The notes under the pieces were generated by a model, which did no database searches, had not been told where the DNA came from, and saw nothing but the letters and a program-made list of their open reading frames with translations. The position numbers and the translations under genes were made by a program. A DNA stretch of 64,000 bases, from contig NW_006917097.1 of assembly GCF_000516985.1 (NCBI RefSeq), positions 2,828,593 through 2,892,592 on the forward strand, in the 5' to 3' direction. The DNA is from Pestalotiopsis fici W106-1 (Eukaryota > Ascomycota > Sordariomycetes > Amphisphaeriales > Sporocadaceae). Position 1 is the first letter of the stretch. Each line of letters starts with the position of its first letter. Shown here piece after piece: positions 31,334-43,010 of the stretch.

Positions 31334-32374
31334 GGGGATCTATGCTTTGGAGAATCATTTGGCATGCTAGACAATGCCAGTTATGATCCGTGGATCGAGA
31401 CGCTCAATTCAAGTACCCAGCAGATTGCGTTTGTTCAGTCTATGGTTGGTCTTGGGTTTGGATGGCTCATAGGTCTTTTATTCCGGTTCATCGCTAGCGA
31501 TATCGAGACGCACGCAAATTCGACAAAAGTCAAAATTGATCGCCGGAGGCTCATCACGACAGACCGGTCAGATCTAATTGAACCACTGCTCAAGCTCCAT
31601 GAGTCCGACGTAAGTGACTGGGCCTCTTGTTGTCTGATACTTTCTAATCTCATCAAATGAATAGAAATTGCCAATGCCAAAAGTCATCTCCAATGCTGGT
31701 ACTCTCTTGGCAGCCGGCTCCGAGACAACAGCAACTCTACTGACGGGTGTGACTTATCTTTTATGCAAAACCCCAGAGGCACTGAAAAAGGTGACACAAG
31801 AAGTCCGTGCAGCATATAAATCAGAGGATGAGATCACGCTCATTTCTGTGAGCAAACTTGACTATATGCTTGCATCTCTTGACGAGGCCATGCGGCTATA
31901 TCCACCTGTGGCCATGGGTTTACCGCGCACGATACGCCAAGGCGGAGATCAAGTTGCCGGTCACTTTCTCCCCGAAGGGGTGAGTCGTTGCAATCATCAA
32001 AATCCATCTTAATCTATGCTCAGACTGACCTATTCCCCCAGACTGTTGCTGCTGTTTACCAGTGGGCCGCGAACCGGTCAACGATGAATTTTCACAACCC
32101 ACTCGCTTACCGCCCAGAACGCTTCTTGTCAGACAGACCTGCAGGATTTGACCGAGACCGCCGCGAAGCTATGCAGCCATTCTCGGTTGGTCCTCGCAAT
32201 TGCGTGGGGAAGAATTTGGCAATTGCCGAAATGCGCCAGATTCTTGCCCGTATCTTATTCAGCTTTGACATCGAGCTCGTTGATCCGAATCTTGACTGGT
32301 TGCATGTGGATTACCAAAAGTCGTTCTTTTTGTGGGATAAACCTCCAATGGAGGTTTATCTCACGCCAGTGTAG
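31334..32374 (+). pseudogene. Cytochrome P450, C-terminal part (separated by inversion)
   Basis: Exons 31334-31609, 31665-31979 and 32042-32374 encode the last 306-307 residues of a P450. Similarity starts abruptly at GDLCFGESFGML, a motif normally about 195 residues into the protein. Then come the I-helix AGSETTAT, the K-helix EAMR (ExxR), the PERF element and the heme loop FSVGPRNCVG with its cysteine ligand. The anchor and first substrate-recognition regions are missing here but lie at 43010-42355 on the other strand, ending exactly where this part begins. An open frame from ATG 31274 could produce a 327-residue stub, which could bind heme at most and is unlikely to be a working monooxygenase. 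It resembles the CYP group that includes isotrichodermin C-15 hydroxylase, generally of specialised metabolism. Confidence 0.85.
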
Positions 32375-33392
32375 AATTTACTTGGGTGGCATTCACATCT
32401 CATACCTTGCCTCTCCTGGCTACCATTTTCAAATTTGTACGAGGACTTCTCGACCACGCGATAATTGTGCTTAATAGGGTATGGAAACAAATTTTGCTAC
32501 GCAAATCCGTTATCACAAAGCAAGCATGAAGGGCTTTTTTGTCCAAATATCAGTACCGAGGCTCAAGAATATATCACTTTAACCAAAATGCTTACAAAAG
32601 TCCAAGACATGAAGAGATTGAAACAATGGTGACACTTCATCTGTCAGTATTTTTGTTATTTTAGACCATGAAAGCGACGCAAATAGACCCTTGACTTCAG
32701 CGCATAAAATCCCCTTTGAGTTCTGTTAATTTGTGACACTGAGGGTCTTTGTTTTGCTCGGGTCCGTTTGAATAAGCCTTCTGAATGACTATAAACTATC
32801 CGTCCCTCATCATCGGAAAGGATGCTGTATTTGGAAATGGACGCTCAGTCTTTCCGTTTCGCGATTCTTACAATTTTGGATACTCCCGGCTAAAGCCCGG
32901 GTGCCCTAGTGCATTTATGAGAACATTGTGGCGGTCGGTGTGACACAGTACCCAGGTTTTCGGGATCCCCCATTCACTATCTGAGAGAACCTAGGGGTCA
33001 AATGACTGTCGACGTATGGTGGGATGCGGACGACTCGTCAATGACTACTTTGTACCAGGAAAGACAGAAATATGGGCCGAGACTAGGCTAGGAGGATTCC
33101 TCGCTCCAGGTTTCCCCATCTTTCTAGCCCGGGGTTCTGGGGAAGCCTAGTATAGCCCCCGCGGGTTCGTAATTTGATCCCGCGGAACAGAATCAGCACT
33201 AAGCGCAAACAAATGCCTACTACCACGACACAGGTGCAATCCTCTGTGTTTGAGTGGATAAATAACCAGTTCAAAAGCTCAACGATATATAACATGGCGA
33301 CTAATCGCCATTGGAAAATTTATATGGCCTGTCTACAGGCCTCGACCGCAAAGACCGTTTGATATTCGTATTTATTTCTTGTTTTATTCATC
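32375..33392. other. Spacer within the inverted segment
   Basis: No coding signal is seen. Near 33157-33184 there is a pair of CCGCGGG/CCCGCGG words including the GATCCCGCG core also found upstream of the PrpF-like gene; it lies about 210-235 bp before the MFS start. Confidence 0.4.
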
Positions 33393-41739: not shown

Positions 41740-42354
41740 AGCAAATAATATTTCACTTTAATCTAGACCTATAATGATTCAATAAGAAAAAAACCTTCCA
41801 TCAGCTTATTCTTGAAAAATCAGCTCGCACACATAATGTGATAAGTAAGTGCTGGTATCTGCATACGCCGTTCTTGTCATGATCCAGTGCTGCAAGGCAG
41901 CAGCACGTCGTCGGCGCAATTAAAAAGTCCTTCTTATTTGAGAGCATCATTCAGGCGTGCCTTGCAACAATTGGATTTGGCAGGCTTCCCATCCACGAGG
42001 GCTGTGGTCTTTATTTGTCTGTCCTCCTCTCAGCCTCTGCCATCCCCGATGGATCTATTGTCCCCTTCGTCGCCATCAATCCAGCAGTCACAGGCAGACG
42101 CGAGCATTGCTTCAAACACAACACACCAAATTCCGTTCCATCACCACCTTTGATTCCGCCTCAGCCATTAATTTTTCCTTCATCATGGCACCCAAAGAGA
42201 TGTACGTGTACAATAAGTGTCGAGGGTCTTGTTAAACTATTACCTCCAACGGATACCACAGACTTTCACAGTTGACCCCCAATCCCTGAACGATGGACGG
42301 TGGACGGTGGACTTAGTGGCTTCAATTGATAACGTCAAGGTAGCATGGATAATC
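41740..42354. other. Spacer up to the right inversion breakpoint
   Basis: 3' flank of the GT90 gene. No coding signal is seen. A small tandem repeat of GGTGGAC lies at 42292-42312, near the breakpoint. The minus-strand frame that continues from the P450 part into this stretch (to 42240) is not P450-like and would add a foreign tail of about 38 residues. Confidence 0.45.
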
Positions 42355-43010
42355 TCCCCAACAACGTCGAATGTAGTCCAGTTGTACCAAGTTCGCAAAT
42401 CAAGTGGCTGTCTCTCGAGCACTCCAGTCGTGGGATTGACCCGTGCGCAGCGTTCTCTCATTCTCTTGATCAAAAGATCAATATAGTCGCGCACGAGACC
42501 CTCTTGAGCCCTCATAGAGCGATCGCTAAAGCCAAGAGCAAGGTGGCGCCGGATCAATGTATGATTGTCTTTTGTCTCGCTGATAATATCGTCGGGTGTA
42601 CTGCCTTTCTTTAGATAGAAGTGCTTAGCCTTGGAATGTTCCGTTTGACCCCGTTTGTAAGAATAAATGTCAGTCCATGCTTGTGGATCAATGAAAGCCA
42701 CTTCATTTGGAGCTAGTCGCACGACGGGTCCGTATTTCTCATGGAGGGCGAGGACTTGGTGGGGTAGACGGCCTCGGATATAATTGATGGACCATGGTAG
42801 TCGTGATATGCGCCACCAAAATGGGCCAGGAAACCGAGAGAGGGGATGCAAGAACAGATTATAGATGCTGTTCAAAATAACATAAAGCACAAACTTTACA
42901 ATTATTAGTTATGCCTTGTCATCGGTGTGGATATTGCCATTCAGGAATCTTGGTGAGTTACTTACAATAGCCACTATAAGGGCTGCTCCAAAGAGAAAGT
43001 TGAAAGCCAT
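42355..43010 (-). pseudogene. Cytochrome P450, N-terminal part (separated by inversion)
   Basis: Exons 43010-42966 (15 codons) and 42893-42355 encode about 194 residues of a P450 N terminus: a membrane anchor beginning MAFNFLFGAALIVAI, the HPLSRFPGPF proline-rich hinge, KYGPVVRLAPNEVAF, the DIYSYKRGQ region, the C-helix-like RRHLALGFSDRSMRAQE and finally TWYNWTTFDVVG. Here P450 similarity stops; homologues continue with DLxFGESF, which is exactly what starts the plus-strand part at 31337. Left as it is, translation would run 38 codons into unrelated sequence and stop at 42240, giving a 232-residue protein without heme site. The split intron (CTATT/GTAAGT to GTAAAG) is normal. This is one half of the inversion-broken gene, not an independent short P450. 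Confidence 0.85.

What the first reader, a model, noticed from the sequence alone, without database searches (positions are those of the whole stretch)
31334..42359. One P450 gene split by an 11-kb inversion, halves joinable to the codon
The P450 C-terminal part (plus, from 31334) and N-terminal part (minus, 43010-42355) are complementary without overlap or gap. Both end at GGGGA; joined there the reading frame is kept and the protein is exactly 500 residues, a normal P450 length. Orientation fits an inversion of the block between them, and not a simple duplication or deletion. Reversing the block would also put two MFS genes and a GT90 gene on the minus strand like all neighbours from 26 to 46.6 kb.
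Basis: partly seen in the sequence, partly recalled or inferred. Interest (0 to 1): 0.86.

Follow-up and report, generated by a model that had tools for sequence, protein, structure and literature searches.

The report
P450 gene split by small inversion
In one strain of a tea-associated fungus, an 11-kb piece of chromosome appears to have flipped and cut a single oxygenase (cytochrome P450) gene exactly in two, an ordinary kind of gene loss caught unusually cleanly.

Summary
The window lies in Pestalotiopsis fici W106-1: PFICI_10503 is identical to the C-half and listed on a contig as long as C7. The P450 pieces at 31334-32374 (+) and 43010-42355 (-) fit each other to the residue. Aligned separately, they project onto the same glycine with offset 0 in 149 of 149 proteins matched by both, of 161 examined. 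Four close relatives, including Pestalotiopsis sp. IQ-011 and a Diaporthe, read straight through the break. No close intact copy was found in the genome as held.

Best explanation: one 11.02-kb inversion, 31334-42354, made by end joining. The broken ends share only 5 bp, and no long inverted repeats flank the block. Both halves are open, with no clear sign of decay, so the event looks young; the gene is very probably dead (inferred).

The block's orientation in a relative could not be checked: no fungal relative's DNA is held. Misassembly is unlikely (no Ns, no repeats at the junctions) but not excluded without reads. Interest is modest: a clean example of a known process.

The parts
42355..43010 (-). 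N-terminal part of the P450 gene: exon 1 (ATG at 43010, 15 codons), one intron, exon 2 up to the break
   Evidence: Pfam PF00067 on the exon-2 ORF at E 2.7e-5, 23.6 bits against a cut-off of 22.8; 86.8% and 85.4% identity to P0001 and P0002
31334..32374 (+). C-terminal part of the P450 gene: three exons with AGSETT, EAMR, PERF and FSVGPRNCVG, the usual I-helix, ExxR, PERF and heme motifs (motif names recalled)
   Evidence: Pfam PF00067 on exons 2 and 3 at about 1e-18, no match for the first exon alone; 100% over 97% of the query to PFICI_10503
31334..42354 (.). Inferred inverted block, 11.02 kb; its ends are the two breakpoints, uncertain by the 5 shared bases
   Evidence: position and orientation of the two P450 parts; no Ns in the window
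31334..31338 (+). GGGGA at the left breakpoint, also at the broken end 42359-42355 (-)
   Evidence: chance about 0.5%
31244..31334 (+). About 90-bp low-copy repeat whose similarity to a copy at C1:5704734 ends at the left breakpoint; part in the event unknown
33393..35169 (+). Sugar transporter gene (PF00083) inside the block, open with introns; boundaries placed by eye
35991..37959 (+). Second MFS transporter gene inside the block (MFS_1; weak TRI12-type match), open with introns; boundaries placed by eye
39847..41739 (+). GT90 glycosyltransferase ORF inside the block, 630 codons open
   Evidence: PF05686 E 8e-13; 91% identical unnamed relative P0163
28100..30919 (-). Transcription factor gene (Fungal_trans domain in ORF 29368-30072) outside the left breakpoint; exact model not built
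26178..27678 (-). PrpF-family gene outside the left breakpoint
   Evidence: PF04303 in two exons

Best explanation
An ancestral cytochrome P450 gene on the minus strand was cut within its second coding exon when the 11.02-kb segment 31334-42354 flipped in place. The C-terminal part went with the segment; the N-terminal part stayed at 43 kb with its promoter. The other breakpoint fell in the stretch upstream of the transcription-factor gene. The footprint, only 5 bp shared at the broken ends and no long inverted repeats, points to end joining of two double-strand breaks, either by microhomology or by filling in of a staggered break, not to recombination between repeats. The P450 is a recent pseudogene. 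Shown: the exact fit of the halves, continuous relatives, no close intact copy in the genome as held, no long flanking inverted repeats. Inferred: inversion as the single event, the repair route, the loss of function, the recent date.
For: Offset 0 in 149 of 149 proteins matched by both halves, of 161 examined. Four close relatives are continuous across the break: P0001, P0002, P0028 (Pestalotiopsis sp. IQ-011) and P0045 (Diaporthe australafricana). The nearest paralogues in the own genome are far: N-half at most 51%; first C exon at most 36% over its length, with one 36-residue match at 44%. DNA searches return only the halves themselves and a short repeat. No inverted or direct repeat of 20 bp or more links the junctions (self-comparison with 11-base words). 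There are no Ns. Neither half has a stop or frameshift before the break. Over 215 residues of C exons 2-3 P. fici has 12 private changes against 17 in IQ-011 and 31 in Diaporthe. The two transporter genes and the GT90 frame in the block are open.
Against: No relative's gene order could be read, so the block's orientation elsewhere is unknown. No reads were examined; the assembly rests on 24.5-fold 454 reads and a 3-kb-insert library (PMC4320822, passages). The genome as held has 20 contigs and 51.7 Mb against 118 scaffolds and 52 Mb in the paper, so an intact copy on a small scaffold is not excluded. In the N part and the first C exon P. fici has more private changes than P0001 or P0002 (13 against 5 and 7; 10 against 2 and 5); that fits P. 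fici as outgroup to the other two, but some relaxed constraint is not excluded. A gene is annotated for the C-half (PFICI_10503, 297 aa), which says nothing about function.
Confidence: 0.84

Rival explanations
1. Assembly error: in the living strain the P450 is intact and the 11-kb piece was laid down backwards.
For: Draft genome: 454 reads at 24.5-fold, Newbler 586 contigs, scaffolded and gap-filled with a 3-kb library (PMC4320822, passages). No independent assembly of this strain was seen among the protein hits.
Against: The 64-kb window holds no N, and no repeats lie at the junctions that could mislead an assembler. A wrong flip would need two wrong joins inside unique sequence.
Confidence: 0.07
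2. One half was moved alone, inverted, by a three-break transposition; the genes between never flipped.
For: Cannot be told from an inversion without gene order in a relative; none was available.
Against: Needs three breaks instead of two, and leaves unexplained why the halves sit exactly at the two ends of one segment in opposite orientation.
Confidence: 0.07
3. The two pieces are remnants of two different P450 genes that happen to complement.
For: P450s are a large family here: 105 exon-level matches, a lower bound that does not include the window's own halves.
Against: Both pieces have the same closest relatives at similar identity (P0001 86.8/86.8%, P0002 85.4/83.5%) and meet with offset 0 in 149 of 149; paralogues in the own genome are far.
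Confidence: 0.02

Closest known systems
Intrachromosomal inversions proposed to cause mesosynteny in Dothideomycetes (Ohm et al. 2012, PMC3516569; passages read)
   Same: A segment flipped within one chromosome of an ascomycete. That paper finds simple repeats over-represented within 500 bp of breakpoints; here one short tandem array (7-bp unit, 3.3 copies, 42290-42312) lies about 40-65 bp from the right breakpoint and none of the others found lies within 500 bp of either.
   Different: P. fici is a sordariomycete. The breakpoint falls inside a coding exon, and both breakpoints can be placed to within 5 bases.
End-joining inversions with or without short inverted duplications at their ends, as described for Drosophila (PMC7584159; passages read)
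   Same: Short shared sequence (GGGGA) at the two ends and no long inverted repeats.
   Different: Only 5 bp; without the ancestral left site, microhomology and a filled-in staggered break cannot be told apart.
Fungal cytochrome P450 family PF00067; the UniRef name of P0044 begins 'Isotrichodermin C-15 hydro'
   Same: Family domain and heme motifs in the pieces.
   Different: Split over two places and strands, so neither piece is a complete P450. The name looks automatic and was not tested.

Membership tests
Gene-splitting simple inversion | Two parts of one gene, complementary without gap or overlap | tested here: met
   Offset 0 in 149 of 149 proteins matched by both halves, of 161 examined
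Gene-splitting simple inversion | Parts on opposite strands, one just inside and one just outside opposite ends of one block | tested here: met
   Coordinates and strands
Gene-splitting simple inversion | Uninterrupted gene in relatives | tested here: met
   P0001, P0002, P0028, P0045
Gene-splitting simple inversion | Block in the opposite orientation in a relative | not testable with these tools
   No fungal relative's DNA held; the GT90 list (120 of 977) named no gene of the genomes of interest
Gene-splitting simple inversion | Reads spanning both junctions | not testable with these tools
   No reads available
Repeat-mediated inversion or programmed invertible switch | Inverted repeats at the two ends of the block | tested here: not met
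   No pair of 20 bp or more links the junctions; window self-comparison with 11-base words finds none there; only 5 bp shared
Cytochrome P450 (PF00067) | Family profile match | tested here: met
   Three of four pieces match (N exon 2, C exons 2 and 3); the ORF 31271-31660 does not on its own
Cytochrome P450 (PF00067) | One polypeptide with both the N-terminal and the heme-binding part | tested here: not met
   The parts lie 11 kb apart on opposite strands
Isotrichodermin C-15 hydroxylase (name of P0044) | Activity or pathway context | not tested
   The name comes from the record only; none of the 50 window ORFs scanned with Pfam matched a terpene synthase family, which is no full survey

The most novel reading that the evidence does not exclude
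Both halves are still expressed and kept by selection, for example as a two-piece enzyme or as a reused C-terminal protein (PFICI_10503), so the inversion made something new instead of a pseudogene.
Probability: 0.02. Interest if true: 0.65.

Novelty: new member of a known kind. Interest (0 to 1): 0.22.

Why it matters
Inversions within chromosomes are held to drive gene-order change in some ascomycetes (PMC3516569, passages). A split coding exon fixes both ends of one such event to within five bases, shows an end-joining footprint, and marks a probable loss of one P450 in this strain or species. It also shows how annotation can hide such a case: half a P450 is listed as a gene (PFICI_10503), while none of the 43 proteins listed for the other half, within the search's length limits, is closer than 86%.

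Tried and rejected
Gene order in relatives through locus tags: the last protein search (GT90; 120 listed of 977) found a 91% unnamed relative and more distant named ones, but no named gene from Pestalotiopsis sp. IQ-011 or Diaporthe australafricana, so no order could be read; near-identical members may be hidden inside clusters. A tRNA or known RNA at the left breakpoint repeat: ARAGORN and Rfam found none, only a chance-level match (E 5.2). Similarity across the lost left junction: score 19, reached by 134 of 200 shuffles. Viral contigs: no relative. A first count of continuous relatives by motif was too strict (70 of 116 full-length proteins) and was replaced by alignment. A faster rate of change as a sign of long decay: not seen in C exons 2-3, ambiguous elsewhere. 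Literature: searches for inversions with P450 and pseudogene, mesosynteny, inversion breakpoints, Pestalotiopsis synteny, IQ-011 and PFICI_10503 (listings) showed no title or abstract start that reports this event; only open-licence papers are held.

Full report
Where it is. The window is contig C7, bases 2828593-2892592, of a 51.7-Mb genome held in 20 contigs. A protein search with the C-half returned PFICI_10503 of Pestalotiopsis fici W106-1, identical over 97% of the query and listed on a contig of 3552968 bases, the length of C7. P. fici W106-1 was described as an endophyte of tea (abstract of PMC4320822); another isolate is called phytopathogenic (start of the abstract of PMC10281576, listing).

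The observation. The N-terminal part runs on the minus strand from ATG at 43010 to the break at 42355; the C-terminal part runs on the plus strand from 31334 to the stop at 32374, with two introns. GGGGA stands at both broken ends. Each piece was aligned on its own to 161 related proteins: the 43 hits and the 120 listed of 1140 hits, one shared, leaving out PFICI_10503, which is the C-half itself. All 161 match the N-half and 149 also match the first C exon; in 149 of 149 the two broken ends fall on the same residue. The pieces therefore fit without a missing or doubled residue.

One gene, not two. The closest relatives of both pieces are the same continuous exons, P0001 (N 86.8%, C 86.8%) and P0002 (85.4%, 83.5%), followed by Pestalotiopsis sp. 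IQ-011 (P0028) and Diaporthe australafricana (P0045). In the own genome the best paralogue of the N-half is 51% identical or less, and that of the first C exon 36% or less over its length, with one 36-residue match at 44%. DNA searches with 1.5 kb around each break return only the window itself plus a short repeat. So the genome as held shows no close intact copy; the paper counts 118 scaffolds, so small pieces may be missing here.

Why an inversion. The C-half lies just inside the left end of a segment and the N-half just outside its right end, on opposite strands. Two breaks and one flip of 31334-42354 explain this; moving one half alone would need three breaks. The segment carries a sugar transporter, a second MFS transporter and a GT90 gene on the plus strand, while PrpF and a transcription-factor gene to the left are on the minus strand. 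This agrees with a flip but is weak evidence: the two minus-strand ORFs to the right have no family. The direct test, the block's orientation in a relative, could not be made: the genome has no relatives in the collection, and the GT90 search listed no named gene from IQ-011 or D. australafricana.

How it happened. No direct or inverted repeat of 20 bp or more links the two junctions, a self-comparison of the window with 11-base words shows none there, and the only shared sequence is 5 bp, which has a chance of about 0.5%. This is what end joining leaves, by microhomology or by filling in a staggered break; such routes are discussed for inversions in Drosophila (PMC7584159, passages). A short tandem array lies at 42290-42312, near the right breakpoint. 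The left breakpoint coincides with the end of a 90-bp stretch similar to C1:5704734 (91% over the first 54 bp, then weaker, ending at 31334). Its core occurs three times in the genome. Whether either took part is unknown.

Real or misassembled. The assembly came from 24.5-fold 454 reads, 586 contigs, and a 3-kb-insert library with gap filling (PMC4320822, passages; section on genome features read). The window has no N and the junctions are in unique sequence. A false flip is unlikely but is not excluded without reads.

State of the gene. Neither half has a stop or frameshift before its break. Over 215 residues of C exons 2-3, P. fici has 12 private differences, IQ-011 17 and Diaporthe 31, so there is no sign of long decay there. 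In the N part and the first C exon P. fici has more private changes than P0001 or P0002 (13 against 5 and 7; 10 against 2 and 5), which fits its place as outgroup to those two but could include relaxed constraint. The C-half has no methionine in frame before the annotated start inside its first exon and lacks the N-terminal 193 residues. The N-half lacks the heme-binding part. Neither piece can make a complete P450; loss of function is inferred.

Known or new. Inversions within chromosomes are an accepted process in ascomycetes, studied in Dothideomycetes (PMC3516569, passages). The searches listed no paper whose title or abstract start reports this event. It is a new instance of a known kind, unusually well delimited.

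The limits of the capped protein lists, the missing small scaffolds and the tandem array near the right breakpoint were added or put more exactly, and two gene boundaries moved by one base.

Noticed in passing
window 58512-62130 (+): A 965-aa ORF joins an isopropylmalate-dehydrogenase-like domain (70-414) to an aconitase/isopropylmalate-dehydratase large-subunit domain (Pfam 543-882), and the following exons appear by eye to continue with a small-subunit-like sequence (ORF 61774-62130 has no family match): a possible fusion of two or three leucine-pathway-type activities.
   Followed up: partly
window 31244-31334 and C1:5704208-5704893: A low-copy sequence of about 90 bp, core in three places in the genome, two of them 533 bp apart; no tRNA or Rfam match above chance. 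Its similarity ends at the left breakpoint.
   Followed up: partly
P0045, Diaporthe australafricana Daus18300_005058: The C-half is 72% identical to a protein of Diaporthe, a distant genus, while the next listed proteins fall to about 53%, a patchy pattern that could mean horizontal transfer.
   Followed up: no
PFICI_10503 (P0044), LQW54_012183 (P0028), Daus18300_005058 (P0045): All three annotated proteins lack the usual N-terminus (297, 343, 359 aa); in P. fici this is the break itself, in the others perhaps a gene-model fault or a real loss.
   Followed up: no
window 26178-27678 (-): PrpF-family gene; its larger exon alone scores nearest to 4-oxalomesaconate tautomerase and 2-methylaconitate isomerase models but far below both cut-offs.
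   Followed up: no
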